A stretch of DNA of 64,000 nucleotides from Burkholderia sp. USMB20 (lineage in GTDB: Bacteria > Pseudomonadota > Gammaproteobacteria > Burkholderiales > Burkholderiaceae), in contig NZ_JTAN02000019.1 in the NCBI RefSeq assembly GCF_000949135.2, forward strand, positions 868,001 through 932,000, in the 5' to 3' direction. The notes below the pieces were generated by a model. It ran no database searches. It was not told where the DNA came from and saw only the letters and a program-made list of their open reading frames with translations. Of the stretch, positions 19,462 to 52,986 are shown piece after piece. How positions within the stretch are numbered: the first letter of the stretch is position 1; each line of letters opens with the position of its first letter. The translations under genes were made by a program, and so were the position numbers.

Positions 19462-19472
19462 GGGGAACGGAC

Positions 19473-20366: not shown

Positions 20367-20902
20367 CTGCTACGGCGCTCCCCGAAGTCAAGATCGTCGA
20401 GCCGAAAGTATTCGGCGACGCGCGTGGCTATTTCTACGAGAGCTTCAACGGGCGCGAATTCGCGGCGCTCGTCGAGGCCGACGTCGAGTTCGTCCAGGAC
20501 AACCACTCGCGTTCCGCGAAGGGTGTGCTGCGCGGGCTCCACTACCAGATCGAGCACGCGCAGGGCAAGCTCGTGCGCGTGGTCGAAGGCGAGGTGTTCG
20601 ACGTCGCAGTCGACATCCGGCGCAGTTCGCCGAATTTCGGCAAATGGGTCGGTGTGACGCTGTCGGCCGACAACCATCGCCAGCTGTGGGTGCCGCCCGG
20701 CTTCGCGCACGGCTTCGTGGTGCTGTCGGAGTCCGCACAATTCCTCTACAAAACCACCGACTACTGGTTCCCGGAGCACGAGCGCAGCCTGCTGTGGAAC
20801 GATCCGGAGATCGGCATCGAATGGCCGCTCGACGGCGAACCGCTGCTGGCCGCGAAAGACGCGGCGGGCAAGCGGCTCGCCGAAGCCGAGTGCTTCCAGT
20901 GA
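20351..20902 (+). CDS. rmlC: dTDP-4-dehydrorhamnose 3,5-epimerase
   Basis: RmlC (RfbC) is a cupin-fold epimerase of 183 residues. The conserved [30 protein letters not shown] (active-site histidine) and [14 protein letters not shown] segments are all present. It overlaps the end of rmlA and the start of rmlD, so the three are translationally coupled. Confidence 0.96.
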
Positions 20903-21822: not shown

Positions 21823-22500
21823 TCAGCCGCGGCGCGTGAGCCGCATGCGGACCGAAGCGAGTTCGGCGGGCAGCCGGCGCGAGCGCTGACGCGACCGCGT
21901 CAGCACGGCAAAGCCGAGCCGCTCGTACAGTTCGCGGGCACGTACATTCCGGGTCAGCACGTCGAGCACGATTTCTCGGCTGCGGTCGTCCGGCACCGCA
22001 CCGGTCTCGAGCGCGTCGCGCAGCAGTGCGGTGAAGATGCCCGTGCCGCGCTGCCGCTCGTCCGTCGCGCAATGCGCGATGAGGATCTGCGCACGTTTCG
22101 GCGCCGGAATCTCCGTTTCGAGCACCAGCCCGCGCAGTAACTGGCCGATCGCGCGGCGCACGCCGAAAAAGCGCGCCAGGGCCCACACGACGTGAAGGTC
22201 GTCGAACATCGTCCGGCGCCCGTCATGGATGGCCATCACGGCTTGCACCGTGCCGTCGGCGCCGACCGCGACCCGATGCCGGCGCCATGAGAACCGGCCG
22301 TGACGCGAGCGGAACGCCTGTTGCAGGAACGCAATGCAGCGCGCGTCGCTTTCACCGAGGAAGAAGCCGAATTCGCCGACACCGGATGCGAACACGAGCG
22401 GCGCGCATGCCGCCGCATCGTCCGCGCAAGCGGCGCGAAACGGTGTCGACGCATCGGCATGCGGCGCGTCGAAGGATGGTGCGAGCGCCGCGGCGGGCAT
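21823..22500 (-). CDS. GNAT-family N-acetyltransferase
   Basis: The 225-residue protein has a C-terminal GNAT fold: ILIAHCATDERQRGTGIFTALL gives the acetyl-CoA pyrophosphate loop in degenerate form (RQRGTG), and NVRARELYERLGF is the final motif. Residues 1-100 are less conserved. It is the last gene of the six-gene minus-strand operon, its ATG overlapping the previous stop as TGATG. In that context it could acylate the amine that the oxoamine synthase introduces and the LpxC-like enzyme exposes. The substrate is inference. Confidence 0.75.
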   Translation of the reverse strand: MPAAALAPSFDAPHADASTPFRAACADDAAACAPLVFASGVGEFGFFLGESDARCIAFLQQAFRSRHGRFSWRRHRVAVGADGTVQAVMAIHDGRRTMFDDLHVVWALARFFGVRRAIGQLLRGLVLETEIPAPKRAQILIAHCATDERQRGTGIFTALLRDALETGAVPDDRSREIVLDVLTRNVRARELYERLGFAVLTRSRQRSRRLPAELASVRMRLTRRG

Positions 22501-23828
22501 CACGTTGCCCGCCCCGCCAGGCGGGCCAGCACGGCGACGGTCCGGCTGATCTGCGCCGGCTCGTGCGTCGAGCAGATGAAGAAACGCAGGCGCGCGGCCT
22601 TCTCCTCGACGGCCGGATAGAAGATCGGCTGCACGTTGATCCCTTCGTCGAACATCGCGTTGGCCCACTGCGCGGCTTTCAGCGAACTGCCGGTGATCAC
22701 CGGCACGACCGCATAGCCGGCGCTCGTGCCGGTGTCGAGCCCGGCGGCGCGCGCCTCGGTCAGGAACTGCCGGCCGCGTGCCTGCAATTGCGCCACCCGC
22801 TGCGGTTCGGCCTGCAGGCGTTCGAGCGCGGCCAGCGACGCTTCTGCGAGCGTCGGCGCGAGTCCGACGCTGTAGAGAAAGCCCGGCGCCAGATGGCGCA
22901 GCATGTCAACGAGCGGCTGGCAGCCGGCGATGAAACCACCGCAACCGGCCAGCGTCTTGCTCATCGTGCCCATCCACATGTCGACCTGGTCGGGCGCGAC
23001 CGTGCAATGCTCGCGGATGCCCTTGCCCGTCGCACCGAGCACGCCGAGCGAATGCGCTTCGTCGACCAGCAGGAACGCGCCGTGGCGCGTCTTCACGTCG
23101 ACGAAACGCTGCAGGTCCGGAAAATCGCCATCCATGCTGTACAGCCCTTCGATCGCGATCAGCACGTGCCGGTATTCGCGACGCACGCGCGACAGCAGTG
23201 CGTCGAGCGCCTGCCAGTCGTTGTGCGCGAAGCTCAACCGCTTCGCGCCGCTCAGCTGCGCGCCCTGCACGATGCTGTTGTGCGCGAGCGCGTCGTGGAC
23301 GATCAGGTCGCCGGGGCCGAACAGCGCACCGATCACGGTCACGTTGGTCGCGTGGCCGCTCACGAACGCGACGCAATCGTCGGTCTCGTAGAACGCAGCC
23401 AGCGCGCGCTCGAGGTCGCGCTGCACCGGACGCTCGCCCGCGACCATCCGGCTCGCGGACGCCGACGTGCCATAGCGGTCGATCGCGGCCTTCGCCCGCT
23501 CGGATACGGCCGGATCGCCGGCGAGACCGAGATAGTTGTAGTTCGCGAAGTTCACGTATTCGCGACCGCCGATCTGCGTGGTCGCGCCGGCGATGCCGTC
23601 ATGCACGCGGAAGAACGGCGAGTCGACGCGCAGCTTCTCGCCCATCTCGCGCATGATCCTGACCTGCTGATACTGCGGCATCGATTCGAAACGGCTGCGC
23701 GCCGACGCGACCTGTGCCGCCGGTGCAGCGGGCACACCGGGCGCCGCGACGGCTTCCGTCGCGCGCTCCAGCTGCCGTTTCAGGGCTTTCGCCGCCAGTT
23801 GCTGGCGAAGGTGTTCTCCGAGTGCCAT
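22500..23828 (-). CDS. wcbT: Alpha-oxoamine synthase (AONS/SPT-like PLP enzyme)
   Basis: This 442-residue fold-type I PLP enzyme belongs to the alpha-oxoamine synthase family (KBL, BioF, HemA, serine palmitoyltransferase), which condenses an amino acid with an acyl thioester with loss of CO2. The sequence shows NFANYNYLGLAGDP, VDEAHSLGVLG and the PLP lysine Lys291 in GTMSKTLAGCGG. About 75 residues precede the core and could dock an acyl carrier. I took the ATG at 23828; a TTG 18 bases upstream is possible. In the operon it sits with a polyketide synthase ending in an ACP, so it probably off-loads the polyketide acyl chain onto an amino acid. The symbol follows remembered gene order in B. pseudomallei capsule I. 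Confidence 0.82.
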   Translation of the reverse strand: MALGEHLRQQLAAKALKRQLERATEAVAAPGVPAAPAAQVASARSRFESMPQYQQVRIMREMGEKLRVDSPFFRVHDGIAGATTQIGGREYVNFANYNYLGLAGDPAVSERAKAAIDRYGTSASASRMVAGERPVQRDLERALAAFYETDDCVAFVSGHATNVTVIGALFGPGDLIVHDALAHNSIVQGAQLSGAKRLSFAHNDWQALDALLSRVRREYRHVLIAIEGLYSMDGDFPDLQRFVDVKTRHGAFLLVDEAHSLGVLGATGKGIREHCTVAPDQVDMWMGTMSKTLAGCGGFIAGCQPLVDMLRHLAPGFLYSVGLAPTLAEASLAALERLQAEPQRVAQLQARGRQFLTEARAAGLDTGTSAGYAVVPVITGSSLKAAQWANAMFDEGINVQPIFYPAVEEKAARLRFFICSTHEPAQISRTVAVLARLAGRAT

Positions 23829-23865
23829 GTCTTTGGTTCCGGGCAATCCGTGCGTTGCGTCCGCA

Positions 23866-24807
23866 TTACGCGGACACGTCGACCCATTCGTACGCGTCGG
23901 GCGTACCTAGCAGCGCGCTGAGGAGTCTGTAGTTCATTTCGTGGGTGGGGCGATGTGCGATGACACGCCCGAGCAGCGGCGAACCCGCGAGCGCAAGGTC
24001 GCCGACGAGATCGAGCACGCGATGACGCACGAATTCATCGGGCGCACGCAGCCCGCCGATCACGTGATTGCCGATGATCGACGCCGTGCACGACGGTCGT
24101 GCGCCACGCAGGATCGGCGTGCCCGTCAGGTAACCGACCGCGATTGCCGGCACGGCCCACTTGATCCGTCCGTACGAACGCGACGACGAAATCTCGCTGG
24201 CAAACGTCCCCGGCGTGAGCTCGCCGTCCCACTGCATATCGCCGAACCCCTTGAGATCGTCGCGCACGCTGAATTCGTAGCGCTCGGCGGGCTCGACGCG
24301 CAATTCGCGCCGCGACGCACCTTCGCCGTCGGCCACGCTCACCGGTTTCAGCACCCGGAGGAAGCGCTTCGAACGCTGCAACTCGGCTCGGCCGCCGGCG
24401 GCGATCGCGTCGATCCAGGGCCGTGCGCTACCGTCGAGAATCGGCACTTCTTCCGCATCGAGTTCGACGATCGCGTGATCGATCTCACAGGTCAGCAGCG
24501 ACGCGAGCAGGTGCTCGACCGTACGCACGCCCATGCCGTCGTCCGCTCGCAGCATCGTGCAGAGCGGTTGTGCACGACGCACCGCCGGGCCGGCGGCAAG
24601 CCTCCCCAGTTCATGCTCGCCGCGCATGCGGCGAAATACGATCCCGTGCCGTTCGGCCGACGGGGCTGCGGGCAGGATCCGCACCTGGACCCGGCGCCCG
24701 GTGTGCAGGCCATGTCCGGTCATCGTCACCGGCCGGGCGACCGTCCCTTCGCTGGCCCGCCATCCTTGCGGCGCTTTCACCCGGCATGCACCGGCGTCGA
24801 TTTGCAT
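23866..24807 (-). CDS. wcbS: LpxC paralogue (UDP-3-O-acyl-GlcNAc deacetylase family)
   Basis: The 313-residue product aligns by eye along the whole length of LpxC: GHGLHTGRRV near residue 31, TVEHLLASL (Glu98-His99), SEISSSRSYG, EFVRHRVLDLVGD (His262, Asp266) and HRPTHE (His289). These correspond to the zinc ligands and general acid-base residues of E. coli LpxC, so it should be an active zinc amidase. It is embedded in a lipid operon; the essential lpxC normally sits in the mra/fts cluster, so this is probably a second copy with another substrate. Its start lies inside the end of the polyketide synthase (31-base overlap). The symbol is from remembered gene order. Confidence 0.82.
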   Translation of the reverse strand: MQIDAGACRVKAPQGWRASEGTVARPVTMTGHGLHTGRRVQVRILPAAPSAERHGIVFRRMRGEHELGRLAAGPAVRRAQPLCTMLRADDGMGVRTVEHLLASLLTCEIDHAIVELDAEEVPILDGSARPWIDAIAAGGRAELQRSKRFLRVLKPVSVADGEGASRRELRVEPAERYEFSVRDDLKGFGDMQWDGELTPGTFASEISSSRSYGRIKWAVPAIAVGYLTGTPILRGARPSCTASIIGNHVIGGLRAPDEFVRHRVLDLVGDLALAGSPLLGRVIAHRPTHEMNYRLLSALLGTPDAYEWVDVSA

Positions 24808-27800
24808 GTTGCTGCCCTCTGGTTTTCGTGATCCTGATTGCGTGCGAGTGTCGCGCGCGCCTCGTCGCCCAGCCCATGCCTCGCGACCAGCGCATCGGCC
24901 AGCTCGTCCGCTGCCGCGACGTTCTCGTTGCCGCCCTGCGCATCGAGCAACTCGACGATGCGCTCGGCCAGCGTATGCACCGTCGCGCCTTCCGCGATCG
25001 CCATGATCGACAGCTTGACGCCGAAGGTCTCCTCGACGGCCATGCCGAGCTCCATGCCCATCAGCGAGTCCATCCCGAGATCCAGCACCGACCGGCCGGC
25101 ATCGACGCGCTCCGGCGACATGTGCAGAATCCGCGCGATCTGGCCGCGCAGCGCCGACTCGACGAGCGCGACGGCCTCGGCCGCCGACAACGTTCGCAAT
25201 TGCTCCAGCAACACGCGATCCTCGCTCGACGCCTCGGCCGCCCCACCCGTTTGCAACGCCGCGTAACGGCGCGCGTGCGCGGCCGGCATGCCGCGCGAGA
25301 TGGCGCCCCAGTCGAGACGCACGACCGCTTCACCGGCGCTCCCTTGCACAAGCGCGCGTTCGAGCGCGCCCATCGCCTCGTCCGACGTGATCGACGCACC
25401 GCCGATCCGCGACTGCAACGCCTCGCGCGTGTCGGCGTTGCGCGCGAGGAAACCGACGTCCTCGATCGGCCCCCATGCCATGAACATCGCCGGCAGCCCC
25501 GCCGCGCGACGATGTGCGACCAGCGCCTCGAGGAAGCCGTTGGCGGCCACATATGCACCCTGCCCCGGATTGCCGAGATAGGTCGTCGCTGATGAGTACA
25601 CGATGAAGAAATCGAGCGCACATCGCCGCGTCGCGCGATGCAGGTTCCATGCACCGGCCACCTTCGGTTCGAGCACGGCCGCAAAGCGCGCGTCATCGAC
25701 GTTGCGCAGCAGACCGTCGTCGATCTGCATCGCCGAATGCAGCACACCCTTGAGCGGCGTCCCGCGACGCTCGATCTCTTCGATGAGGGTTTCCAGCGCC
25801 GCGCTGTCGGTCACGTCGCATCGTGCGACCGACACGTGCGCGCCGAGCGCGTCGCGCCAGCGATCGGCTTCGGCCTGCATCGCGGCGCCCAGTGCGCCGC
25901 CGCGACTCGCGAGTGTCAGGTGCCGTGCGCCGCGCTCGATCATCCAGCGCGCGGTCGCGAAACCCAGCCCGCCGGTGCCCCCGACGATCAGGTACGCCGC
26001 CTGCGGGTCGAGCCGCAGGGTCGGCACCGCGACGCCGCGCGTCGGTACCGGCGTGCCCGACGGATAGGTGACCAGCACCTTGCCGATCTGGCGCGCCTGC
26101 TGCATGTAGCGGAACGCTTCCTCCGCACGCGCGGCCGGGAACGCGCGGTACGGCAGCGGATGCAGCACGCCGCCCGAGAACAGGTCCATCACTTCCTCGA
26201 ACAGTCGCGTCGTCAGCGACGGCAGCACGCCCATCAGCTGATCGGCGTCGATGCCGAAATAGCTGATGTTGTTGCGGAAAGGCCGCAGGCCGATCTGGCT
26301 GTTCTCGTAGAAGTCACGCTTGCCGAGTTCGAGGAAACGGCCGAATGGACGCAGCGTATCGATGCTGCGCACCATCGCTTCGCCGGCGAGCGAATTGAGC
26401 ACGATGTCGACGCCTTCGCCGTGCGTGCGCGCGAGAATCTCGTCGGCGAACGCGAGGCTGCGCGAATCGAATACGCGGTCGACGCCGAGCAGGCGAATGA
26501 ACTCGCGCTTCTCGTCGCTGCCGGCGGTCGCGAAGACTTCGGCGCCGAGATGCCGCGCGATCTGGATCGCCGCAATACCGACCCCGCCCGCACCGCCGTG
26601 CACCAGCACGCGCTCGCCGCGTCGCAGCCGCGCCAGTTCGCAAAGTGCGTAGTACGCCGTGAAGAACGTCGTCGGGACCGTGGCGGCCTCCTCGAACGAC
26701 ATCGTGTCGGGCTTGCGTGCAATCGCGGTTGCGCGCGTGACCACGCGCGTCGCGAACGATGCCGGCGCGAAACCGAGCACCACATCGCCCGGCGCAAAAC
26801 CGTCGACGTCCGGGCCGACCCGGGCGACGCGCCCCGACATTTCCATGCCGATCGTCGCGCCCGCGAAGCCCGTCTCGACCGCTTCGTCGGACAGCAGCCC
26901 CATCGCATACATCACGTCGCGGAAATTGAGCCCGGTCGCCATCGGCTCGATCTCGACCTCGCCGGTGGCGAGATCGTGTGCTGGCATCGCGAACCATTCG
27001 AGGTTGCGCAACGAACCCGGCATGTCGAACGCGAGCCGTGCTCCCGGGTGGTCCGATGCAGGCGGCAGCGCGTTGTCGCGCTCGGCTGCCTGCGCGGCCG
27101 GCAGCATGCGCGGCACGTAGCGGCCCTGCGGTGCCAGCAGCACTTCCTCTTCGCCATCGTCGCCGAGCAGCGCCATCGCAAGCTGCAGCGTCGGTCGTTC
27201 GACGGCCTGATCGACGTCGATCAGACGGATCGGCAGCGTCGGATACTCGTTCGCGATCACGCGGCCGAGGCCCCACAACGTTCCGTGCTCGGGATGCGCC
27301 GACGCACCGGCCGCGAACGGCGCACCGCCGCGCGTCACGACGCACAGCCGACCGCGTTCCGACGCGCCCGCCGCATCGAGATCGCGCACGAGCGATGCCA
27401 GTGCGAGCGCGCCGTCGTGCTGCGCATGCATCACGGCCGCCCCGTCGGCCGAGTCGAGCGATGCAAGCGGCGCCACGAACACGACATGCGCCGGATGCTC
27501 TGCCGGCTGACGCGCCGACCATGCGGCGGCGTCACGCACCGATGCCGATTCGACCCGGCAACCGAGCCGCTCGAGCTCGCCCGCCAAGGAAATGCCGAAC
27601 GCGTCGTCACCGTCTTGCGCGATCAACCAGTGCGCCGCGTCGCTCGTCGCCATGCGACGCGCGAGATCCGCGTCGTGCGATGCGATAGCCACCGGTTCGT
27701 CGGCGAATGGCTTGCGTGCGGCGATGAAGGTCGGCACGCCTTCGAGATCGAGGCCTTGTTCGGTATCGCGCACCACGTCGACGAGCCCGGCGCGTTCACA

Positions 27801-30800
27801 CATCGCGACGATCGCGGCTGGCGCCAGCGTGCCGTACGCACCGGCGGACACTTCGCCGCCGGCCATGCCGAACACGATGTCGGAGAACCGGCTTCGCCGC
27901 CCTTCCGTGATGGCGACCAAGCCGCCCGGTGCGAGCCGTTCGGTGATCGCCGTCAGCGCGGCGAGCGGATCCGGGTGATCGCCCAGCATCCGGTTGACGA
28001 TCACGACGTCGAACGGCGTCGTATCGCAACATTGCGCGAACAACGGCGCGTCGGTCGCAAACGCCAGCGTTCGTACCTGCGCGTGCGCTTCTGCATCGAA
28101 CCCGGCGAGCTGCTGCTGCGTACCTGCCAGCAGGTATTCGCAGCGACCGGCCGGCACGTCAACGTCGAGCGGTTGCAGCACGTCGCCGCTCGCGGCACCG
28201 ATCTCCAGCACACGCAAGCGCCGTGCATCCGACCACGCTGCGATCGCCTGCGTCACGCAGGCGGCGAGCAGCGCACGCGCATGCGCCCAGGTCGGCGAGG
28301 CATCGAAGAACTGCTCGACCAGACTGCGCCCGGTCGACGACAGCAGCGCGCCCTCGGACGACGCGTCGCTCAGCACGCGCGGCAACGCCGCGCCGACGTG
28401 CGCCAGCAACGTCAGTTCGGCGACATGGGCCGGCGATGCCGCCAGCACGTCGCGCCACAGCGCGTCACGCGCGGGCATCGCCGCGCAGGCTTCGTCATCG
28501 CGAACCAGACTATCGCCGTCGAAACGGGCCAGCCCGTCTTCGACGACGATCTCCGCCAGACGGGCGACCTGTTGCGGGTGCGTGCCCATCGGCAGCGCCG
28601 GCTGGGCGAAGACGCCAAGCGCATCCAGTGCGTCGAGCGCATGCAGACCGGCGAGCACGTCGAGCAGCGGCAGCATTTCGGTCAGATGCTGCGTGCGGCG
28701 CGCGTGGTCTTCGCGCGCCGCGACATGCGCGTTCGCACGCTCGACGAGCATACCCGGCTGTGGCAGTGCGGCGGCCGTGTAACCGCCCGGCAGCGGCCGC
28801 GCTTCGAGCACGTAGGCAAAGCGCGCCGGCGCGCCGTGACGGCGCCCGGCGAGATCGACGCGACGGAAGCGGCACGCGGCAAGGCGCGCGACGATCCTGC
28901 CGCTGGCATCGATGAATTCGAACGATGCGACGATCGAATGCGGGCTGCGGCGGTGAATGCGCGCCAGCACGCGACGAATCGATTCGCCGCTCAGGAAATC
29001 GACGCGGCCGATCTGGACCGGAACAAATGCCGCATGCGCATCGTCCGGTGCGGCGCCGGCCTGCCCCAGCACCGCGAACAGCGGATGGAAACCGCTGTCC
29101 ATCAGCGCGGGATGCAGCAGATAGTCCGACCGCGCATACGCGTCGGCCAGGGCCGTCGGCACCTCAAGCTCGGCAAGCGCGTCGTCTCCCGACACGCACA
29201 GCGACCGCACCCAGCGGAACGCCGGGCCGTAGCTGAGGCCGATCGCCGCCGTGCCCGCATACAGCGCGTCGCCGGACAGCGCGGGACGCGATTGCAGCCG
29301 CGCGATCACGGACGCCTCCGGCATGCTGTCCGCATCGAGCGTATTGCCGCTTTCGAGCAGGCGCCCCGTCACGTTCAGGTTCCACGGGCCGTCCGTCATC
29401 CGGTCGCGCGTCTCGATCGTAAACGACGCGGTGCGCACGTCGATCGCGAACCGGAACAGCTTCGCGTGCTGCGGCTGGAACACGACCGGCATGCGGATCT
29501 CGACGTTCTCGATGGCGACGTCCTCCGTGCCGAAGAACGTGCGCGCCGCCGCGAGCGCCATTTCGACATAACCGGCACCGGGGAACGCGACGCCACCGTC
29601 GACGACGTGATCGGCGAGCATCGCCACGCGCTGTGGATCGAGCTGGTTCTCCCAGGCGAACGCATGCTCGTGCAGGCGATACCCGAGCAGCGGATGATCG
29701 ACGCGGCGGTTCACGAGCCCGTAACCCTCGACGCTCGGCACCAGCCAGTAACGCTCACGCTGCCACGGATAGGTCGGCAGCGCGGCGTGCGGCGCGTCGG
29801 GCACGAAGCGGTCGAGATCGACGCGCGCGCCTTGCGCAACCGCCGACAGGACCGAATGGGCGAGCATCTCCGCGCTATCGTGCTGGCGCTTGAGCGTCGG
29901 CACGACGACGCCCGGCGCAACGCGCGCCGCAAGCGTCTGCTTCACGTAGGTGCGCAGGATCGCGTGCGGCGCGATCTCGACGAACACGCGCACGCGATCG
30001 TCGGCCAGACGGGAAATTGCGTCGCCGAAACGAACCGGCTCGCGAATGTTGCGCCACCAATAGCCCGCGTCGAGCGCGGTGCCCGACAGCGTGTCGCCGG
30101 TCACCGTCGACACGAATCGCGTATGCGTCTCGCGCGGCGCGAGATCGGCCAGCCCGTCGCGCACGACCGGCTCGATCGCGTCCATGCGGCTGCTGTGGAA
30201 CGCGTAATCGAGGTCGAGCATCTGGTAGAAATGGCCCGCGTCCGCAAGCGCCGCGCCGATTGCTTCCAGCGCAGCTTGCGAACCGGCGAGCGTCACTGAC
30301 TCGGGGCTGTTGGTGCCGGCAATTTCGATGGCGGCGCCGAGTTCGAGACGCGCGATCCAGTCGCGCGCCGCGGCTTCGCCGATGCCGGCCGCCGCCATCC
30401 TGCCTGCGCCACGCGTGAGACCCTGTGCCCCGCTGCGGATCCGGATCACGCGCACGGCTTCGGCGAGCGTGAGTGCACCCGACGCCCAGGCCGCGGCGAT
30501 CTCGCCGACACTGTGGCCGACCGCCGCGTCGAAGCGGATGCCGCGCGCGGTCAGCACACGCGTGATGCCGACCTGCATCGCGAACAGCAGCGGCTGCGCG
30601 TTCTCGGTCGCGGCAAGCCATGCGGCGTCGACGCCTTCGCGCATGACTTCGACGAGCGACGCGTTGCCGTCTGCACGCCAGAGCGCATCGACTTCGTCGA
30701 GTGCCGCGCGAAACACGGCGTCCTCGCCATAGAGCCGCTTGCCCATCCCGGCCCATTGACTGCCGTTGCCCGCATAAACGAACGCGACCGGCGCGTCGCC

Positions 30801-32393
30801 TTCGACGGCCTGCCCCTGCACCGCGCACGCCGGCAGCCCGCGCGCCGACGGCTCGGCAAGTGCGGCGAGCGCGGCCAGCCCTTCGGCCCGATCTGCCGGC
30901 GCGATGACCGCGCGATGCTCGAGCCACTGGCGACGCCGTGCGGCGGCAGCCGCGAGTGCGGCCCAGTCGGCACCCGACTGCAGACGTGCGAGATAGCGCG
31001 CAGCGACGGCCGCCAGCGCAGCCGGTGAACGTGCGGTGAGGACGAGCGGCGGCAACGGTGCATCGATCCTTGCCGCCGACTGTGCGGTGGGCGCGGGTGC
31101 CGCTGCTTCGGTGATGACGACGTGCGCATTCGTGCCGCCAAAGCCGAACGAGTTGATGCCGATCGTCAGCGGGGCTTCGCCGCGCTCGAGCGGCGTGAAC
31201 CGATCGACCACGCGCAAGCGGCCGCCATCGAAATCGATGCCGGGATTCGGCGTATCGAAATGCAGCGAGCGCGGCACCGCACGATGCTTCAGGCACAGCA
31301 CCGCCTTCAGCAGGCCCGCCATTCCCGATGCCGTTTCGAGGTGCCCGATATTGGTCTTGACCGAACCGATCAGCAGCGGATCGGATTCGGGCCGGCCGCC
31401 CGACACCGCATCGATCAACGCACGCGCCTCGATCGGATCGCCGACCGCCGTGCCCGTTCCGTGTGCCTCGAGATACGCGAGCGTGCGCGGATCGATGCCA
31501 GCGCGCCGATACACGGCGCGCAGCAGGTCCGCCTGCGTCGCCGCGGCCGGCACGTTGATGCCGCCATGCGAATGGCCATCCGAATTCACGCCCGATCCGG
31601 CGATGACCGCGTGGATCGTATCGCCGTCGGCCAGCGCCTGATCGAGCGGCTTGAGCAGCACGAACGCACCGCCCTCGGCACGCACGTAGCCGTCGCCGGT
31701 CGCGTCGAACGCACGGCAGCGGCCGCGCGGCGACAGCATCGACGCCTTCGAGAAACTGACGAATCCGAACGGGTGCAGCAGCAGGTTCACGCCGCCGGCC
31801 AGCGCCATCGCGGTCTCGCCCGACTGCAGCGCCCGGACCGCCTGATGGAGCGCGACGAGCGAAGACGAGCATGCGGTGTCGACCGACATGCTCGGGCCGC
31901 GCAGGTCGAACAGGTAGGACACGCGGTTCGACGCAATGCTGAGCGTGTTGCCGGTTGCCGAATACGGATCGATCGTGTTCATGTCGTCCATATTGCGGTT
32001 GCCGTAATCCATGCCCGCCACACCGACGAACACGCCGCAGTCGCGGCCGCGCATCGCAGCCGGACGCACGCCGGCGTCCTCGAACGCCTCCCACGCGAGT
32101 TCGAGCAGCAGCCGCTGCTGCGGATCCATTTGCGCGGCCTCGCGCGGCGAGATGCCGAAGAATTCGGCGTCGAAGCCCGCGACGTCATCGACGACGCCCG
32201 CCGCGAACGTGTAGCTCTTTCCCGGCTCGCGCTTCGACGGGTGCTGGTAGAACGCCGTACCGAAACGGTCCGGTGGGATGGCGGTCACGGCGTCGCGTTC
32301 GTCACACAGCAGTTGCCAGAAGTCGTCCGGTCCCTCGACCCCACCGGGAAAGCGGCACGCTATCCCAATAATTGCAATTCGTTTTTCCATCAT
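24777..32393 (-). CDS. wcbR: Highly reducing type I polyketide synthase
   Basis: A 2538-residue single-module megasynthase. Approximate domains: KS 1-430 (Cys174 in DTACSSSLVAL, then EAHGTGTAVGDP and NIGHLETASG); AT 530-840 (GHSVGEIAAAW near 626, specificity motif YAFHS); DH 905-1180 (HVVDGGVAFPGAG near 929); methyltransferase-like 1340-1560 (LEIGAASGDVL); ER 1790-2100 (VHGGAGGVGIAA); KR 2135-2310 (GGTGGLGFAT, AYVAANG); ACP 2410-2490 (LGMDSLMG near 2442). There is no thioesterase, so release needs a partner, plausibly the oxoamine synthase. The set KS-AT-DH-MT-ER-KR-ACP predicts a saturated, perhaps methyl-branched chain. I start at ATG 32393, which overlaps the previous stop (TGATG). It resembles the capsule fatty-acid-synthase-like WcbR. 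Confidence 0.9.
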   Translation of the reverse strand: MMEKRIAIIGIACRFPGGVEGPDDFWQLLCDERDAVTAIPPDRFGTAFYQHPSKREPGKSYTFAAGVVDDVAGFDAEFFGISPREAAQMDPQQRLLLELAWEAFEDAGVRPAAMRGRDCGVFVGVAGMDYGNRNMDDMNTIDPYSATGNTLSIASNRVSYLFDLRGPSMSVDTACSSSLVALHQAVRALQSGETAMALAGGVNLLLHPFGFVSFSKASMLSPRGRCRAFDATGDGYVRAEGGAFVLLKPLDQALADGDTIHAVIAGSGVNSDGHSHGGINVPAAATQADLLRAVYRRAGIDPRTLAYLEAHGTGTAVGDPIEARALIDAVSGGRPESDPLLIGSVKTNIGHLETASGMAGLLKAVLCLKHRAVPRSLHFDTPNPGIDFDGGRLRVVDRFTPLERGEAPLTIGINSFGFGGTNAHVVITEAAAPAPTAQSAARIDAPLPPLVLTARSPAALAAVAARYLARLQSGADWAALAAAAARRRQWLEHRAVIAPADRAEGLAALAALAEPSARGLPACAVQGQAVEGDAPVAFVYAGNGSQWAGMGKRLYGEDAVFRAALDEVDALWRADGNASLVEVMREGVDAAWLAATENAQPLLFAMQVGITRVLTARGIRFDAAVGHSVGEIAAAWASGALTLAEAVRVIRIRSGAQGLTRGAGRMAAAGIGEAAARDWIARLELGAAIEIAGTNSPESVTLAGSQAALEAIGAALADAGHFYQMLDLDYAFHSSRMDAIEPVVRDGLADLAPRETHTRFVSTVTGDTLSGTALDAGYWWRNIREPVRFGDAISRLADDRVRVFVEIAPHAILRTYVKQTLAARVAPGVVVPTLKRQHDSAEMLAHSVLSAVAQGARVDLDRFVPDAPHAALPTYPWQRERYWLVPSVEGYGLVNRRVDHPLLGYRLHEHAFAWENQLDPQRVAMLADHVVDGGVAFPGAGYVEMALAAARTFFGTEDVAIENVEIRMPVVFQPQHAKLFRFAIDVRTASFTIETRDRMTDGPWNLNVTGRLLESGNTLDADSMPEASVIARLQSRPALSGDALYAGTAAIGLSYGPAFRWVRSLCVSGDDALAELEVPTALADAYARSDYLLHPALMDSGFHPLFAVLGQAGAAPDDAHAAFVPVQIGRVDFLSGESIRRVLARIHRRSPHSIVASFEFIDASGRIVARLAACRFRRVDLAGRRHGAPARFAYVLEARPLPGGYTAAALPQPGMLVERANAHVAAREDHARRTQHLTEMLPLLDVLAGLHALDALDALGVFAQPALPMGTHPQQVARLAEIVVEDGLARFDGDSLVRDDEACAAMPARDALWRDVLAASPAHVAELTLLAHVGAALPRVLSDASSEGALLSSTGRSLVEQFFDASPTWAHARALLAACVTQAIAAWSDARRLRVLEIGAASGDVLQPLDVDVPAGRCEYLLAGTQQQLAGFDAEAHAQVRTLAFATDAPLFAQCCDTTPFDVVIVNRMLGDHPDPLAALTAITERLAPGGLVAITEGRRSRFSDIVFGMAGGEVSAGAYGTLAPAAIVAMCERAGLVDVVRDTEQGLDLEGVPTFIAARKPFADEPVAIASHDADLARRMATSDAAHWLIAQDGDDAFGISLAGELERLGCRVESASVRDAAAWSARQPAEHPAHVVFVAPLASLDSADGAAVMHAQHDGALALASLVRDLDAAGASERGRLCVVTRGGAPFAAGASAHPEHGTLWGLGRVIANEYPTLPIRLIDVDQAVERPTLQLAMALLGDDGEEEVLLAPQGRYVPRMLPAAQAAERDNALPPASDHPGARLAFDMPGSLRNLEWFAMPAHDLATGEVEIEPMATGLNFRDVMYAMGLLSDEAVETGFAGATIGMEMSGRVARVGPDVDGFAPGDVVLGFAPASFATRVVTRATAIARKPDTMSFEEAATVPTTFFTAYYALCELARLRRGERVLVHGGAGGVGIAAIQIARHLGAEVFATAGSDEKREFIRLLGVDRVFDSRSLAFADEILARTHGEGVDIVLNSLAGEAMVRSIDTLRPFGRFLELGKRDFYENSQIGLRPFRNNISYFGIDADQLMGVLPSLTTRLFEEVMDLFSGGVLHPLPYRAFPAARAEEAFRYMQQARQIGKVLVTYPSGTPVPTRGVAVPTLRLDPQAAYLIVGGTGGLGFATARWMIERGARHLTLASRGGALGAAMQAEADRWRDALGAHVSVARCDVTDSAALETLIEEIERRGTPLKGVLHSAMQIDDGLLRNVDDARFAAVLEPKVAGAWNLHRATRRCALDFFIVYSSATTYLGNPGQGAYVAANGFLEALVAHRRAAGLPAMFMAWGPIEDVGFLARNADTREALQSRIGGASITSDEAMGALERALVQGSAGEAVVRLDWGAISRGMPAAHARRYAALQTGGAAEASSEDRVLLEQLRTLSAAEAVALVESALRGQIARILHMSPERVDAGRSVLDLGMDSLMGMELGMAVEETFGVKLSIMAIAEGATVHTLAERIVELLDAQGGNENVAAADELADALVARHGLGDEARATLARNQDHENQRAATCKSTPVHAG

Positions 32394-33925
32394 CACGCCG
32401 GCGTCTGCAGCATCCCGGTCGGCGAAGCGGCGCGCGTGCAATCGACGTGCACCATCGCGCGCTGTATCGCGGCACCGAGACTCTCGACGCGAACGTTTCG
32501 TTGCTCGCCGAAATCGTTCGCGAAGTTGCGCCAAATAAAGTAGTCGCTATTGGTCGGTTCGGTTCCGAGCGCGTCGAACACCGAAGTCAAAGCAGGAACG
32601 TGATCGCCGTAAAAGCACAGCACGGTCGGTCGTTCCCGCATGCGGAGATAATCAGTCAGCTTGCCGATCATGCCGTCGGCATTCTCGACATGTCGAAGAT
32701 AGGCGGTCAGGTCGCGCCAGCGCGCGTCGTCGCCGAGCGTATGCCGCGATTCGGACTCACCCGGCCTGACCGATTCCAGATGCAGCGGGCCATGGTTTTC
32801 CATCGTGATCGCAAATGCGAATACCGGCCTGTCGCCGTGCGCCTGGAGGGCCGCGATGATCGCATCGGCCACCGGACCGTCGCCGATATACGGCCCGATT
32901 CGCGTCGCATCGCCGAAATCCCGAATGTCCAGAAAGCGGTCGAAATGCATGAACCGGAATGCCCGGTCGCGCCCGAAGAAGTCGGCGTGATACGGATGAA
33001 TCGCGAGCGTGCGATATCCGCCTTGCTTGAACCAGCCCGCCAGCGACGCGCACGCGCGGCGCACGTACATGTACGGATAAAAGCGCGAATAGCCGAGCGC
33101 CGCCGACGGCAAACCCGTCAGCATCGCGAATTCGCTGCGCATCGTATTCGCGCCCCAGGCGGGAACGTCCAGGCTGCCCTGCATGAATGCTTCGCTGCGG
33201 GCGCGATCGAGATTCGCGTAAGGCTCCGACAGCACGCTTGCGCCGAGACGGCGCGCGTCGAAATAGGATTCGCTCTGGATGACGATCACGTCCGGCGTGC
33301 TGTCCGGACGGCCGCCGGAGAATGGCCCGGCATCGACCGCGCGAAAGAACGCATTGCGTTCCGCGCGCCGCAGCCCGTTGACGAGGTAAGCGACGAATGT
33401 CGCGAAGAACCCCGTGCGGCGCTGGTCCGCCATCGGGTCGAGCGTCAGCGGCATGCGACGCGACAGCGCGACGCAAACCGGCACGCAAGCGGCCGCGATC
33501 AGTGCAGCGGCGCTACGCGCCGTCGAGCCGGCCGATTGTTCGAGCAGAAACCCGGCCGTCGCGACCTCAACGGCGGCAGCGATGCCGAGCACCTTGCTGG
33601 CACTCAGAAACGGCAGATAGAGACGCGGATGTGCGAAGACCTGGCTGAACAGGCTCAGGTCCGTAAAGACGAAGGGCTCGCGCAGGGATTCGTATTTTGC
33701 GTTGCTGATGACCGCCAGCAAGGCGATCAGCACGAGGGCGACGGATGCCGAGAAAAGCGGCCGTGCCGTCACGGCGAAAGTCGCGCCCGCCACGATCGCG
33801 AACGCGCAGACATGCAGTGCGATCGCCGCCGGCGAACGGGCGAGCGACGCGCGCGGATACGCGATGGCCTCTACGAGAAATGAGAGTGCGGCTGCGGCAG
33901 CCGCGAACGCGAATCCGGGCAGCAC
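32393..33925 (-). CDS. wcbQ: Membrane sulfatase-fold transferase (LTA synthase/phosphoethanolamine-transferase-like)
   Basis: The 510-residue protein has about four to five N-terminal membrane segments, then a sulfatase-fold domain: DVIVIQSESYFDARRL, GANTMRSEFAMLTGLP with the likely nucleophilic threonine, ITMENHGPLH and CFYGDHVPAL as metal-binding sites. Proteins of this architecture move phosphoglycerol or phosphoethanolamine from phospholipids onto glycans or lipids outside the membrane. I chose the GTG at 33925, just after the preceding stop; upstream readings overlap the reductase gene and lose hydrophobic character. In the operon it may add a phospho-headgroup to the polyketide lipid. 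Symbol by remembered order. Confidence 0.78.
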   Translation of the reverse strand: MLPGFAFAAAAAALSFLVEAIAYPRASLARSPAAIALHVCAFAIVAGATFAVTARPLFSASVALVLIALLAVISNAKYESLREPFVFTDLSLFSQVFAHPRLYLPFLSASKVLGIAAAVEVATAGFLLEQSAGSTARSAAALIAAACVPVCVALSRRMPLTLDPMADQRRTGFFATFVAYLVNGLRRAERNAFFRAVDAGPFSGGRPDSTPDVIVIQSESYFDARRLGASVLSEPYANLDRARSEAFMQGSLDVPAWGANTMRSEFAMLTGLPSAALGYSRFYPYMYVRRACASLAGWFKQGGYRTLAIHPYHADFFGRDRAFRFMHFDRFLDIRDFGDATRIGPYIGDGPVADAIIAALQAHGDRPVFAFAITMENHGPLHLESVRPGESESRHTLGDDARWRDLTAYLRHVENADGMIGKLTDYLRMRERPTVLCFYGDHVPALTSVFDALGTEPTNSDYFIWRNFANDFGEQRNVRVESLGAAIQRAMVHVDCTRAASPTGMLQTPA

Positions 33926-33926
33926 G

Positions 33927-34712
33927 TCACGCCTTCCCGCGCGGGAGGTAGGACAGACGACCGAGAATGGCATCCGCCAGCGTGGCCGGCAGCAGGCGCA
34001 GCAACTTGATGCCGAAGGCAAGACTGAACGGAAAGGCGATTTCCACGCGGCGTCGCGCGAGGCGCTTCTTGATGTATCCGGCGGCCTTGTCCGCACTCCA
34101 CATGAATGGCTTGCTGCCCGGGAAGACGTCGCTCATTGCCGTGCGGACAAAACCCGGCATCACGACCGACAGGCCGATGCCCTCGCGTGCGAGGATCGGG
34201 CGCACGGAATCGCAGTAGGCGACCAGCGCCGCCTTGCTCGCGCAATAGGCGGGCGAGATGGCCATGCCCCGCAATGCGGCGAGCGAGCTGACGACCGCGA
34301 TCTGTCCGCGCCCGCGCATGCGCATCCGGTCGATGGCCGGCAGCACCGCATGGAGTGCGCCGTACAGGTTGGTATCGACGACGTCGGCGGTACGCGCCAT
34401 GTGCTCCCAGTCGTCGGCGGACTGCAGCGTGCTGGCGACGCCTGCATTCGCAATCATCAATTCGATCGGGTATCGGGTATCGAAATCGATCATCCAGTCC
34501 TGGACGGCGGCCGAATCGCGCACGTCCATGCAGCCGATCACGACGCGGGCGCCGCGCGCGCGGCATTCTGCAGCGACGGATTCCAGCCGTGCCGAATTTC
34601 TGCCAATCAACCCCAGCGTGATATCGGGCGCGGCATAACTCAATGCCAGCGCGCGCCCAAGCCCGGCACTACTGCCGGTTATCACGATTGCTCGTGGCCC
34701 GTTTGCGCTCAC
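33927..34712 (-). CDS. wcbP: Short-chain dehydrogenase/reductase
   Basis: A classical SDR of 261 residues starting at the GTG at 34712, preceded by GGGGAGGG. ITGSSAGLGRAL binds the cofactor; ANAG, VVSSLAAL with the catalytic serine and YCASK follow. The longer open frame upstream is AT-rich and non-homologous, so it is not coding. As first gene of an operon with an oxoamine synthase, it is a candidate for reducing the 3-keto group of the amino-ketone product, the role of 3-ketosphinganine reductase in sphingolipid synthesis. That is inference; the SDR fold alone does not give the substrate. Symbol by remembered order. Confidence 0.8.
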   Translation of the reverse strand: MSANGPRAIVITGSSAGLGRALALSYAAPDITLGLIGRNSARLESVAAECRARGARVVIGCMDVRDSAAVQDWMIDFDTRYPIELMIANAGVASTLQSADDWEHMARTADVVDTNLYGALHAVLPAIDRMRMRGRGQIAVVSSLAALRGMAISPAYCASKAALVAYCDSVRPILAREGIGLSVVMPGFVRTAMSDVFPGSKPFMWSADKAAGYIKKRLARRRVEIAFPFSLAFGIKLLRLLPATLADAILGRLSYLPRGKA

Positions 34713-40686: not shown

Positions 40687-40688
40687 GT

Positions 40689-51129: not shown

Positions 51130-52986
51130 TTAGTTTTTAAATTTGAATTGAATGTCCAGCAGTGTGACGGGCCCATTCGTCTGCCGCCAGCCGATGTCAT
51201 GACTGGGTTGCTCGTTGTACTGCAGCAACATACTCAATACGTTTTCCTGCTCCCACCGCAATCGGTCGATTACGGGTTCCGCGAACCCGAGATCCTCATC
51301 CCACAGAACCCGGGTGTTGTCTTGATGCCAGGTGTACTCGGGGGCGGCCAGTACTGTCGCAACCATTCTTCCGTCGCTGTGATCTCCGCGAGTAATGATG
51401 TACGCGTTGTCCAGGCGGTCGATAACGATTTCCGGCCGACTGATCGGGATCTGCAGCGTTCCACCACCTTGCAACGCAAATGGCTCAACGCGTTGCGATA
51501 CGATCTGGTGATGCCATTGCTTACCGTCGTACCGCAAGTGTTGATACTGCGGGATGCCGTTTGAATCATCGGCATAAAAAACGATATGCGGACGATTGCA
51601 GCTATCGAGCGCCATGCTGCATTGATTAATGAGGTTGCTGCCCGGAGACACCGGATGAACCGTTTCAGCATTTACCGGCGTAATCGGAAGCTGGTAGCCT
51701 CGCCCTTTGGACGTTACCCAACTGACCCCATTGTCTAGCGAGCAGGCGTAGCCGATATTGATGTTGTTGACTCGCTCCTCCACACCGAGCGTATGTGTAC
51801 GCCAGACAAAGCTCAGGTGAAGGCTGCCGTTCCGACCGATAGCCGGGTGGTTCCAATAGGCGTTACTGGTCCACGGTTTCGACTCGCTACCGCTCAAAAC
51901 AGGTGTCGGATGGTCCGTCCAACCCGCGGATGCCTCGTCGTAGGTCTTGAGACGCGCGGTGCCATTGTTGTGTACGCCATCGCGATATAGCAGCGTCAAC
52001 GGAAAGCCATGATGCGGCTGCATGAAAGTCGGGTAGGTTACCTTCGTTTCAGCCTCTCCAGTCATGGGCAGTTCGTCGGTCCAACTCGATATATCGTTGG
52101 GTCGAGTGCTTCTGCGATATCGCAACTGCGTAGCGTGGTGATCGTAACAAATGTGCAGATGGTCAGCGCGATCGATACCGAGACTGATGCTGTTGTGAGC
52201 GTCTGCCAAATTGTATTCACCATACAGGTCAAACGTCTGCAGATCATCTGTCTCCAGATCACGGCGCACGACGCGCAGCGTATGCGCATCGACATAAAAG
52301 GCCGTGATTTGCTTTCCCTGATGAGTCAGAACACCGTGGTGGCGAAAGATAACCGTATTGATCGTATTTCCGGCCCAAGCATCACCTAGATCGAACTCAG
52401 CCAGCTTGACGACATGAAAACGTCGTGTGGATGAGTGCGAGAAACGTCGATCCGATCGCGCAACGCTTTCCAGCTCTCTTTCAAGATGACCGGGCGCTAC
52501 GCCAAGTTCGCTGCACTGCTGGTGGATTCGTGCCTTGGTCAATAGCGATCGGTCGGCCTCCGGTGTACCGACAGCAATGGAAGATTCGAAATGAGCGAGC
52601 GCCCGCGGCAGATTACCGGCCACAGCGGCGGCACGCCCCAAGCTGTTATGAACGCCTGCTGCAAGAATCTGGCAAAGGAGCTTCTGGCTGATCCCCCAAT
52701 CCTGGGCGAGTCGAATGAACTGTTTGGCTTCGGCGATTTGCCCGGTTTGCAGGCGGCCTGCCGCTGCAAGCAGGGCCAGCTTGGCTCGATCCGGATGGTG
52801 CTGCAAGACACCACGCCCGAGTTGGGCGAGGCTGTGCCAGTCGCCGAACTGCCATTGCGTGCGCGCACGCTCCAGCAGATTCTCGTCGTAAGGAACAACG
52901 GCGGAATCGATCTCGACTACCGTGACGGGCTGTGCAGATTCCTTCGCCGCCGTCGTATAGCGAACGGACGCGGATTTCTTTCTCAT
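51130..52986 (-). CDS. Helical/TPR-like protein with C-terminal BNR-4 propeller
   Basis: A 618-residue protein without signal peptide. Residues 30-190 look like paired helices of TPR type (GDWHSLAQLGRGVLQHHPDR, AVAGNLPRALAHFESSIAVG). From about 215 a BNR-4 propeller follows: AHNSISLGID then LHICYDHH, TYPTFMQPHHGFPLTLLYRD, matching the same residues as in the secreted paralogue at 43861. A lyase-like domain retained in the cytoplasm or at the export complex could cut or bind the growing chain. It overlaps the coiled-coil gene upstream in ATGA and precedes the giant transferase, so the three are coupled. Function is inferred from family. Confidence 0.7.
   Translation of the reverse strand: MRKKSASVRYTTAAKESAQPVTVVEIDSAVVPYDENLLERARTQWQFGDWHSLAQLGRGVLQHHPDRAKLALLAAAGRLQTGQIAEAKQFIRLAQDWGISQKLLCQILAAGVHNSLGRAAAVAGNLPRALAHFESSIAVGTPEADRSLLTKARIHQQCSELGVAPGHLERELESVARSDRRFSHSSTRRFHVVKLAEFDLGDAWAGNTINTVIFRHHGVLTHQGKQITAFYVDAHTLRVVRRDLETDDLQTFDLYGEYNLADAHNSISLGIDRADHLHICYDHHATQLRYRRSTRPNDISSWTDELPMTGEAETKVTYPTFMQPHHGFPLTLLYRDGVHNNGTARLKTYDEASAGWTDHPTPVLSGSESKPWTSNAYWNHPAIGRNGSLHLSFVWRTHTLGVEERVNNINIGYACSLDNGVSWVTSKGRGYQLPITPVNAETVHPVSPGSNLINQCSMALDSCNRPHIVFYADDSNGIPQYQHLRYDGKQWHHQIVSQRVEPFALQGGGTLQIPISRPEIVIDRLDNAYIITRGDHSDGRMVATVLAAPEYTWHQDNTRVLWDEDLGFAEPVIDRLRWEQENVLSMLLQYNEQPSHDIGWRQTNGPVTLLDIQFKFKN

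What the first reader, a model, noticed from the sequence alone, without database searches (positions are those of the whole stretch)
21823..34712. A sphingoid-like lipid pathway inside a capsule locus
Six coupled genes encode a reductase (SDR), a membrane sulfatase-fold transferase, a highly reducing polyketide synthase without thioesterase, an LpxC paralogue, an alpha-oxoamine synthase and an acetyltransferase. The families and their intact active-site motifs are seen directly. Together they could build an acyl chain on the ACP, release it by decarboxylative condensation with an amino acid, reduce the ketone, adjust the N-acyl group and add a phospho-headgroup, the logic of sphingolipid synthesis. 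The order matches what I recall as wcbP-Q-R-S-T of the B. pseudomallei capsule I locus, where the product is, as far as I know, uncharacterised.
Basis: partly seen in the sequence, partly recalled or inferred. Interest (0 to 1): 0.8.

Follow-up and report, generated by a model that had tools for sequence, protein, structure and literature searches.

The report
Sphingolipid-making module in a capsule locus
A Burkholderia-type capsule gene cluster carries a built-in pathway that most likely makes an unusual sphingolipid with a phosphoglycerol head, probably the lipid on which the sugar capsule is built or anchored, which would answer a long-open question about how these capsules are held on the cell.

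Summary
The six genes are real, intact, overlapping or nearly abutting and in the order given (window 21823-34712, minus strand), inside an ABC-exporter capsule locus. A homologous PKS-AOS pair (PfSgaAB, PMC12134224, 2025) makes C24-C28 sphinganines and, most likely, phosphoglycerol sphingolipids; its AOS is a serine palmitoyltransferase. That paper does not mention capsules and names no headgroup enzyme. My additions: the PKS-AOS pair sits in capsule loci of alpha-, beta- and gamma-proteobacteria. WcbQ (sulfatase fold) travels with it: 42 of 46 AOS genomes; 10 of 19 AOS-positive against 0 of 281 AOS-negative Burkholderiales. Its nearest relatives are phosphoglycerol transferases (GacH, LtaP, LtaS), so it is the likely headgroup enzyme. 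The PKS methyltransferase is degenerate, so chains should be straight. The module occurs with two export classes, with and without KpsC/KpsS; the second, the window's, carries a new coiled-coil protein. Best reading: a dedicated sphinganine-phosphoglycerol replaces lyso-phosphatidylglycerol as capsule lipid. The capsule step is inferred, not shown. The LpxC-like protein and the window's type of GNAT were found only in Burkholderiaceae loci; their steps are unexplained.

The parts
33927..34712 (-). WcbP/RkpH/SgaC-type SDR, predicted 3-ketosphinganine reductase (open frame runs to 34919; GTG 34712 fits relatives of about 262 aa)
   Evidence: Pfam adh_short 8.1e-36; TGSSAGLG, NAG and YCASK motifs; 42% identical to the Pseudomonas L029 orthologue
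32393..33925 (-). WcbQ, membrane enzyme of the LTA-synthase/sulfatase fold, predicted phosphoglycerol transferase (open frame runs to 34096)
   Evidence: PF00884 4.2e-39; best solved relative GacH 5.6e-17; model pLDDT 88 with N-terminal helices; best Foldseek E-values GacH, then LtaP, LtaS
24777..32393 (-). WcbR/RkpA/SgaA-type iterative PKS: KS-AT-DH-(degenerate MT)-ER-KR-ACP, no thioesterase (open frame runs to 32534)
   Evidence: Pfam domains; motif conservation in 72 proteins
23866..24807 (-). WcbS, LpxC paralogue with intact catalytic residues; role unknown
   Evidence: PF03331 7.3e-66; NF009666 506.7 bits over cut-off 423, TIGR00325 158.8 under cut-off 187.25; 17 of 17 keep catalytic residues
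22500..23828 (-). WcbT/RkpG/SgaB-type alpha-oxoamine synthase, predicted serine acyl-ACP transferase (open frame runs to 23846)
   Evidence: PF00155 1.9e-46; own group apart from SPT and Kbl in the tree; 58% identical to the Pseudomonas L029 enzyme
21823..22500 (-). GNAT acyltransferase of unknown substrate
   Evidence: PF00583 3.5e-6; model pLDDT 89; generic GNAT fold matches
58103..59275 (-). KpsE-like capsule export protein
   Evidence: TIGR01010 283.6 bits, below its cut-off of 437.5; HMM built here
59272..59934 (-). KpsT-like ABC ATPase
   Evidence: PF00005 2.1e-16; HMM
59931..60746 (-). KpsM-like ABC permease
   Evidence: PF01061 8.9e-9; NF050053 107 bits, below its cut-off of 300
60753..61934 (-). 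Wza/KpsD-like export protein
   Evidence: PF02563 and SLBB domains
52983..55706 (-). Protein X: new TPR-like N-domain plus long coiled coil; marks the KpsC/KpsS-less export class
   Evidence: No good Pfam match; found in 8 of 9 KpsC/S-less and 1 of 52 KpsC/S-positive AOS genomes; 5 of the 8 gave rows to the model

Best explanation
The module makes a dedicated phosphoglycerol sphingolipid for the capsule. The iterative PKS builds a long, straight, fully reduced acyl chain on its ACP. Having no thioesterase, it hands the chain to the AOS, which condenses it with L-serine, losing CO2, to a 3-ketosphinganine. The SDR reduces this to sphinganine. WcbQ, whose catalytic domain should lie outside the inner membrane by analogy with LtaS and GacH, moves glycerol phosphate from phosphatidylglycerol onto it. 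The result is a single-chain phosphoglycerol lipid, an analogue of lyso-phosphatidylglycerol, the known acceptor for KpsS/KpsC capsules. I infer that it serves as acceptor or anchor of the exported polysaccharide. Shown elsewhere for homologues: PKS plus AOS give sphinganines; the AOS is serine-specific; phosphoglycerol sphingolipids exist (structure proposed from mass). Inferred here: WcbQ as headgroup enzyme, and the lipid as capsule anchor. Unknown: the LpxC paralogue and the GNAT.
For: Chemistry: PMC12134224: deleting sgaA or sgaB abolishes C24/C26/C28 sphinganines; purified SgaB strongly prefers L-serine to Ala or Gly; species 154 Da heavier assigned as phosphoglycerol sphingolipids; SDR SgaC proposed as reductase. 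Its sgaA forward primer matches the start of the PKS of locus L029 without mismatch; in L029 that PKS and AOS stand beside KpsC, GNAT, WcbQ, SDR and KpsS. Headgroup: WcbQ best matches GacH and LtaP by sequence, and GacH, LtaP and LtaS by Foldseek E-value. Linkage: 76 of 80 AOS loci have the PKS beside the AOS, 63 within 500 bases and 13 with LpxC between; WcbQ in 42 of 46 AOS genomes, and in 10 of 19 AOS+ against 0 of 281 AOS- Burkholderiales, p 6.6e-14; in genomes G020 and G152 the only sulfatase-family match is WcbQ; SDR and WcbQ stay paired in 5 of 6 genomes where WcbQ lies away from PKS-AOS. Capsule: KpsC/S (best E under 1e-40) in 14 of 19 AOS+ against 11 of 281 AOS-, p 1.1e-13. An Acidisoma capsule locus with no annotated PKS in the 21 kb seen pairs an AOS with SDR, a fatty acid hydroxylase, KpsC/S and a WcbQ-like protein. 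Straight chain: degenerate methyltransferase, in line with the published C24-C28 series. Genetics in print: wcbQ, wcbS and wcbT appear with other capsule genes in a Tn-seq virulence list (PMC4631991, passages).
Against: No lipid or capsule terminus was measured here. In MYb115 the phosphoglycerol sphingolipids were found as free lipids and the paper does not mention a capsule; inducing sphinganine did not raise them. A wcbR-containing deletion is reported to reduce capsule, not abolish it (PMC7858667, passage), so the lipid may not be strictly required. WcbQ should act outside, whereas KpsS adds Kdo at the cytoplasmic face (PMC7694667, passages): the lipid would have to flip. By query-normalised TM-score the full-length phosphoethanolamine transferases MCR-1 (0.56) and EptA (0.51) exceed GacH (0.47), probably because they include the membrane part, so a phosphoethanolamine head is not excluded by fold. 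4 of 46 AOS genomes have no WcbQ, and 7 of 17 AOS+ Burkholderiales (divergent G174 and G300 left out) have none at 1e-60. The WcbQ model held rows from G017, G018, G020 and G028, so these four hits are not independent. WcbQ could instead modify the glycan, as GacH does. The genomes are related, so p values are only indicative. The window's own genome is not held.
Confidence: 0.6

Rival explanations
1. The module makes a free sphingolipid for the outer membrane or for signalling to hosts; it lies in capsule loci because both are surface functions that are co-regulated and co-inherited, and is not the capsule's anchor.
For: In MYb115 the lipids were found free and act on the nematode host (PMC12134224). 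A wcbR-containing deletion only reduces capsule (PMC7858667, passage).
Against: Strong association with ABC-type capsule export genes and KpsC/S over many families and with WcbQ; a capsule locus with no annotated PKS has a sphingoid-like set with another AOS.
Confidence: 0.22
2. The sphingoid base is the capsule lipid, but WcbQ adds glycerol phosphate to the polysaccharide, as GacH does, rather than to the lipid.
For: The best sequence match is GacH, and by Foldseek E-value GacH, LtaP and LtaS. The Cobetia paper reads WcbQ as transferring glycerol phosphate to the chain (PMC11766843, passage).
Against: WcbQ is kept across many capsule-type loci and is found only in AOS genomes in the Burkholderiales sample; phosphoglycerol sphingolipids are proposed in a homologous system.
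Confidence: 0.13
3. A secondary-metabolite cluster for a sphinganine-analogue bioactive compound, like fungal fumonisin-type clusters, parked in a capsule locus.
For: Same enzyme logic: reducing PKS, AOS and ketosphinganine reductase. A PKS-fused AOS lies outside a recognised capsule locus in Planktothrix.
Against: No oxygenase among the module's Pfam hits; degenerate methyltransferase; frequent company of capsule export and KpsC/S genes.
Confidence: 0.05

Closest known systems
PfSgaAB(C) of Pseudomonas fluorescens MYb115 (PMC12134224)
   Same: Iterative PKS without thioesterase plus AOS and SDR. The Pseudomonas L029 PKS starts with the published sgaA primer sequence; the window's AOS is 58% identical to the L029 AOS.
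   Different: The paper links it neither to capsules nor to a headgroup gene (0 hits for capsul, wcb, rkp, lipoteichoic, polysaccharide). The window adds an LpxC paralogue; no KpsC/S was found in its locus. The PfSgaB sequence itself was not compared.
wcbPQRST / wcbPQRT capsule lipid operon (Burkholderia pseudomallei, Cobetia)
   Different: No B. pseudomallei record was compared here; Cobetia as described has no wcbS; the passages seen give no sphingolipid chemistry.
rkp-1 region (rkpA-G-H-I-J) of Sinorhizobium meliloti
   Same: Homologous PKS, AOS, SDR, WcbQ-like and KpsS genes in one run. Gene names rkpA-J for this run are recalled. Kiss 1997 title on capsule production seen only as a reference.
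   Different: No LpxC paralogue or GNAT found in the stretch; WcbQ-like protein only 28% identical.
KpsS/KpsC lyso-PG-Kdo capsule terminus (E. coli K5)
   Same: ABC export and a single-chain phosphoglycerol lipid acceptor (PMC7694667, passages).
   Different: Here the lipid would be a dedicated sphingolipid, and no KpsC/S was found in the window locus.

Membership tests
PfSgaABC-type PKS sphingolipid cluster | Iterative type I PKS without thioesterase next to an AOS, with an SDR | tested here: met
PfSgaABC-type PKS sphingolipid cluster | AOS condenses an acyl thioester with L-serine | not testable with these tools
   Shown for PfSgaB; 58% identity to the L029 AOS
PfSgaABC-type PKS sphingolipid cluster | Products are C24-C28 sphinganines and phosphoglycerol sphingolipids | not testable with these tools
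   needs lipidomics
wcb/rkp capsule lipid module | PKS, AOS, SDR and sulfatase-fold genes in an ABC-exporter capsule locus | tested here: met
Canonical serine palmitoyltransferase (NF047599, NF047600, NF047603) | Score over the curated cut-off and branching with SPTs | tested here: not met
   287, 278 and 223 bits against cut-offs of 500, 640 and 670; separate from 8 SPTs, split support 98
LtaS/GacH-type phosphoglycerol transferase | Alkaline phosphatase fold with Thr nucleophile and metal-ligand positions, nearest to GroP enzymes | tested here: met
   (nearest by sequence and Foldseek E-value, not by TM-score); activity not tested
LpxC equivalog (TIGR00325) | Score over cut-off 187.25 | tested here: not met
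   158.8 bits; over cut-off for NF009666. Three relatives carry a second, higher-scoring LpxC elsewhere
KpsS/KpsC (Kdo-linker) capsule | KpsC/KpsS (PF05159) in the locus | tested here: not met
   None among the window ORFs given to Pfam or by HMM over window ORFs of 80 aa or more. Relative G330 with the same locus has only one weak distant match, 1.3e-17
Fumonisin/sphingofungin-type HR-PKS with C-methylation | Active C-methyltransferase in the PKS (feature recalled) | tested here: not met
   SAM motif degenerate over 72 PKS proteins
Bacterial ceramide pathway (SPT, bCerS, CerR) | Ceramide synthase-type N-acyltransferase | tested here: inconclusive
   GNAT model matches generic acetyltransferases; no bCerS sequence was compared

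The most novel reading that the evidence does not exclude
Many alpha-, beta- and gamma-proteobacterial ABC-exported capsules are built on a dedicated sphingolipid, sphinganine-phosphoglycerol, made by a single-module PKS acting as a private fatty acid synthase, with WcbQ as its phosphoglycerol transferase. The lipid replaces lyso-PG. It serves two exchangeable export classes: one primed by KpsS/KpsC, and one, the window's, without them, marked by a new TPR/coiled-coil protein that may act as a chain-length ruler or assembly scaffold.
Probability: 0.45. Interest if true: 0.85.

Novelty: new variant of a known kind. Interest (0 to 1): 0.7.

Why it matters
It joins two literatures that I did not see linked: PKS-made sphingolipids of microbiota bacteria and the unexplained lipid genes of wcb and rkp capsules. 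If right, it names the lipid anchor of a large group of capsules, supplies the missing headgroup enzyme for phosphoglycerol sphingolipids, supports the published suggestion that Burkholderia-type bacteria make sphingolipids by this route, and defines a second class of capsule assembly without KpsC/KpsS.

Tried and rejected
Rejected: (1) Membership in canonical SPT, BioF or Kbl families: all cut-offs missed; separate from SPT and Kbl-like rows in the tree. (2) Methyl-branched chain: the methyltransferase motif is degenerate. (3) GNAT and LpxC paralogue as an obligatory acetylation/deacetylation pair: L001 and L012 have the LpxC paralogue with no GNAT found. (4) The GNATs of Pseudomonas L029, L035 and L061 as the same protein: only 22-23% identical. 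(5) Antisense ORFs 20342-21570 first listed as genes: the real gene there is RmlD-like on the plus strand. Led nowhere: a Pfam or PDB name for protein X; GNAT fold search (generic matches); pattern search for the published sgaB end in 298 Pseudomonas genomes (8 with two-mismatch matches, loci not examined). Full-text searches for a print link between capsule loci and PKS/AOS sphingolipids: 0 papers; 0; no such link seen in the listings. The library holds open-licence papers only, and two key papers are not held. Rows dropped before a count: L099 (duplicate of L009) from the tree; G174 and G300 (divergent AOS) from the protein X test. Only 47 of the 80 scan loci were given to and one of these (L016) is not held.
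Full report
Observation. The window carries six minus-strand genes that overlap or nearly abut from 34712 to 21823: an SDR, a sulfatase-fold membrane protein (WcbQ), a reducing PKS, an LpxC paralogue, an alpha-oxoamine synthase (AOS) and a GNAT protein. Pfam confirms each family. They end a capsule locus whose other end (58103-61934) encodes Wza/KpsD, KpsM, KpsT and KpsE; nucleotide-sugar and glycosyltransferase genes lie between. The AOS is 96% identical to those of Burkholderia lata and B. seminalis, so the window is probably from a Burkholderia cepacia-complex-like bacterium (inference). The window's own genome is not held.

PKS anatomy. In 72 PKS proteins of over 2350 aa, one per locus, the catalytic residues of KS, AT, DH, KR (Ser, Tyr, Asn) and ACP are 100% conserved; the AT carries the malonyl-type AFH motif (A in 91%). 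The SAM-binding motif of the methyltransferase region is not conserved: its first glycine is kept in 48%, and the commonest residue of the following columns in 22-44%. Of the 72, 71 end within 100 residues of the ACP motif, so there is no thioesterase; the other one is 470 residues longer, which fits the Planktothrix PKS fused to an AOS. The enzyme therefore looks like a private fatty acid synthase for a straight chain that must be off-loaded by a partner.

AOS. It scores below all curated cut-offs for BioF, Kbl and SPT. In a 109-row tree it lies with 94 relatives, including AOS domains inside larger Planktothrix and Streptomyces proteins, apart from 8 SPTs, 5 Kbl-like enzymes and a Roseomonas AOS (split support 98; quick method, midpoint root, several long branches flagged). 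It was not found in 4: L048, L073, L087, and L076, where the AOS is near a contig end. In L087 an AMP-binding enzyme stands before the AOS instead.

Published chemistry. PMC12134224 (abstract, sections 7, 8 and 15, and passages seen) shows that PfSgaA (PKS) and PfSgaB (AOS) of P. fluorescens MYb115 make C24-C28 sphinganines; [quoted passage not shown] and that species 154 Da heavier are most likely phosphoglycerol sphingolipids. It proposes an SDR, SgaC. It reports 6,101 homologous clusters, with Burkholderia the dominant genus. It has no hit for capsul, wcb or rkp, nor for lipoteichoic, LTA synthase or polysaccharide, and the passages seen name no headgroup enzyme. The published sgaA forward primer matches the start of the PKS of my locus L029 (P. 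putida 31753) without mismatch; the sgaA end matches with 4 mismatches and the sgaB end was not found within 4, so L029 is a relative, not MYb115. L029 runs PKS, AOS, PhyH, KpsC (two pieces), GNAT, WcbQ, SDR, KpsS, KpsC. The locus tags of sgaB (RS19800) and sgaC (RS19775) leave room for four genes, as between AOS and SDR in L003 (PhyH, KpsC, GNAT, WcbQ). This last step is inference from tag spacing.

Headgroup enzyme. WcbQ's best solved relatives are GacH phosphoglycerol transferase (5.6e-17) and a Listeria lipoteichoic acid primase, LtaP (2.8e-8). Its model (pLDDT 88) has N-terminal helices and a sulfatase-fold domain. The best Foldseek E-values are GacH (including the glycerol-phosphate complex), then LtaP, a Vibrio alkaline-phosphatase-family protein and LtaS. 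Phosphoethanolamine transferases come later by E-value (MCR-1 at rank 14, EptA at 25), but their query-normalised TM-scores (0.56 and 0.51) exceed GacH's (0.47), probably because the full-length entries include the membrane part; fold alone does not exclude a phosphoethanolamine head. Thr nucleophile, metal-ligand and HP..F..R positions are invariant (roles recalled). WcbQ (E up to 1e-60) occurs in 10 of 300 Burkholderiales genomes, all among the 19 with the AOS (E up to 1e-100), and in 0 of the 281 others (Fisher 6.6e-14). In both searches at most five candidates per genome were scored, so single misses are possible. Among 46 AOS genomes from the scan, 42 have it; G019, G023, G045 and G046 do not. 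The model held rows from G017, G018, G020 and G028, so those hits are expected. Of the 19 Burkholderiales, 9 lack WcbQ at that threshold, two of them with a divergent AOS (42-49% identity: G174, G300). In G020 and G152 WcbQ is the only sulfatase-family match of the genome. In six genomes where WcbQ lies away from PKS-AOS, the SDR is beside it in five. This company argues for a role on the lipid rather than on a variable glycan (inference).

Capsule link. PF05159 (KpsC/KpsS) matches 43 of 51 AOS genomes or records (46 genomes and 5 plasmid records; 47 of the 80 scan loci were given, L016 not held). The family also rings in 2 of 14 control genomes, E. coli and B. subtilis. In the 300-genome sample a strong match (best E under 1e-40) occurs in 14 of 19 AOS+ and 11 of 281 AOS- genomes (p 1.1e-13); with weak matches included, 15 of 19 and 22 of 281 (p 3.5e-12). 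The genomes are related, so these p values are only indicative. In the stretches held, 35 of 80 loci show a Kps gene and 38 of 80 WcbQ; 20 of the 80 are shorter than 15 kb. Only 1 of the 19 (G152) also holds a canonical SPT (E up to 1e-140), which 10 of 300 have. An Acidisoma plasmid stretch of 21 kb with no annotated PKS holds SDR, AOS, fatty acid hydroxylase, two PF05159 proteins, a WcbQ-like protein and an ABC permease; the rest of that genome was not searched for a PKS.

Two export classes. Nine AOS genomes without a strong KpsC/S match (G004, G017, G020, G028, G031, G034, G045, G152, G330), the Caballeronia plasmid L001 (only the plasmid was searched) and the window form a second class. 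A protein of about 600-1200 aa, window 52983-55706, with a conserved N-domain (weak TPR matches) and a long coiled coil, occurs in 8 of those 9 genomes and in 1 of 52 KpsC/S-positive AOS genomes (G025), p 2.7e-8. Five of the 8 (G004, G017, G028, G031, G034) supplied rows to the model, so the test is partly circular; G020, G152, G330 and G025 did not. G174 and G300 were not given. In L012 the protein ends in an FkbM methyltransferase domain, which recalls coiled-coil chain-length rulers such as WbdD (recalled, not tested). In the AOS tree KpsC/S-less and KpsC/S-positive Burkholderia members are intermixed, so the lipid module seems to be passed between export types.

Mechanism and weak points. 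Most likely the product is a sphinganine-phosphoglycerol, a single-chain phosphoglycerol lipid like the (lyso-)PG that KpsS uses at the cytoplasmic face (PMC7694667, passages). WcbQ should act outside, by analogy with LtaS and GacH, so the lipid would have to return to the inner face, or the polysaccharide would have to be joined differently. A deletion including wcbR is reported to lower but not abolish capsule (PMC7858667, passage), whereas Tn-seq lists wcbQ, wcbS and wcbT beside other capsule genes (PMC4631991, passage). The LpxC paralogue has intact catalytic residues in 17 of 17 relatives; three of four relatives tested carry a second, higher-scoring LpxC elsewhere, and the fourth (G020) had no LpxC match. 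Its substrate is unknown; among the held loci it was found only in Burkholderiaceae. The GNAT fold is generic.

Prior print. The Cobetia paper already calls wcbPQRT 'capsular polysaccharide lipid biosynthesis' and says little is known of the proteins (PMC11766843, passages); PMC3908369 (passages) treats wcb and rkp as homologous clusters with a PKS. No paper linking capsule loci to PKS/AOS sphingolipids was seen in the listings of searches (open-licence library only). What is new here is the link and the assignment of WcbQ; the enzyme logic itself is not new.

Noticed in passing
window 52983-55706 (-): TPR-like/coiled-coil protein without a named family, present in 8 of 9 KpsC/S-less AOS genomes and 1 of 52 KpsC/S-positive ones; its L012 relative ends in an FkbM methyltransferase domain.
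   Followed up: partly
L121 (Acidisoma plasmid) 9046-21053: Capsule locus with no annotated PKS in the stretch but with SDR, AOS, fatty acid hydroxylase, two PF05159 proteins and a WcbQ-like protein: perhaps another route to a sphingoid-like capsule lipid.
   Followed up: partly
L087 7864-11323: Planctomycete AOS preceded by an AMP-binding enzyme instead of a PKS.
   Followed up: no
L022 11333-12178: Formyltransferase-domain gene directly after the AOS in a Thiotrichaceae locus; similar-sized ORFs follow the AOS in L026, L028 and L030, not tested.
   Followed up: no
L017 (B. seminalis): WcbQ and AOS each appear split in two frames; real breakage or sequencing error, not resolved.
   Followed up: no
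L004 8584-16182; L006 11314-16146: AOS domain fused to a PKS in Planktothrix and inside a 1610-aa protein in Streptomyces plasmids, with no capsule export genes recognised nearby.
   Followed up: partly
window 45379-51117 (-): 1912-aa protein with several glycosyltransferase domains and an RgpF domain, between two BNR_4 proteins.
   Followed up: no
window 39712-40776 (-): Protein with no Pfam hit; its 77% identical L001 relative is annotated polysaccharide deacetylase.
   Followed up: no
window 18400-21813 (+): rml-type genes (dehydratase, nucleotidyltransferase, RmlD-like with about 190 unassigned N-terminal residues) abut the GNAT end of the locus on the other strand.
   Followed up: no
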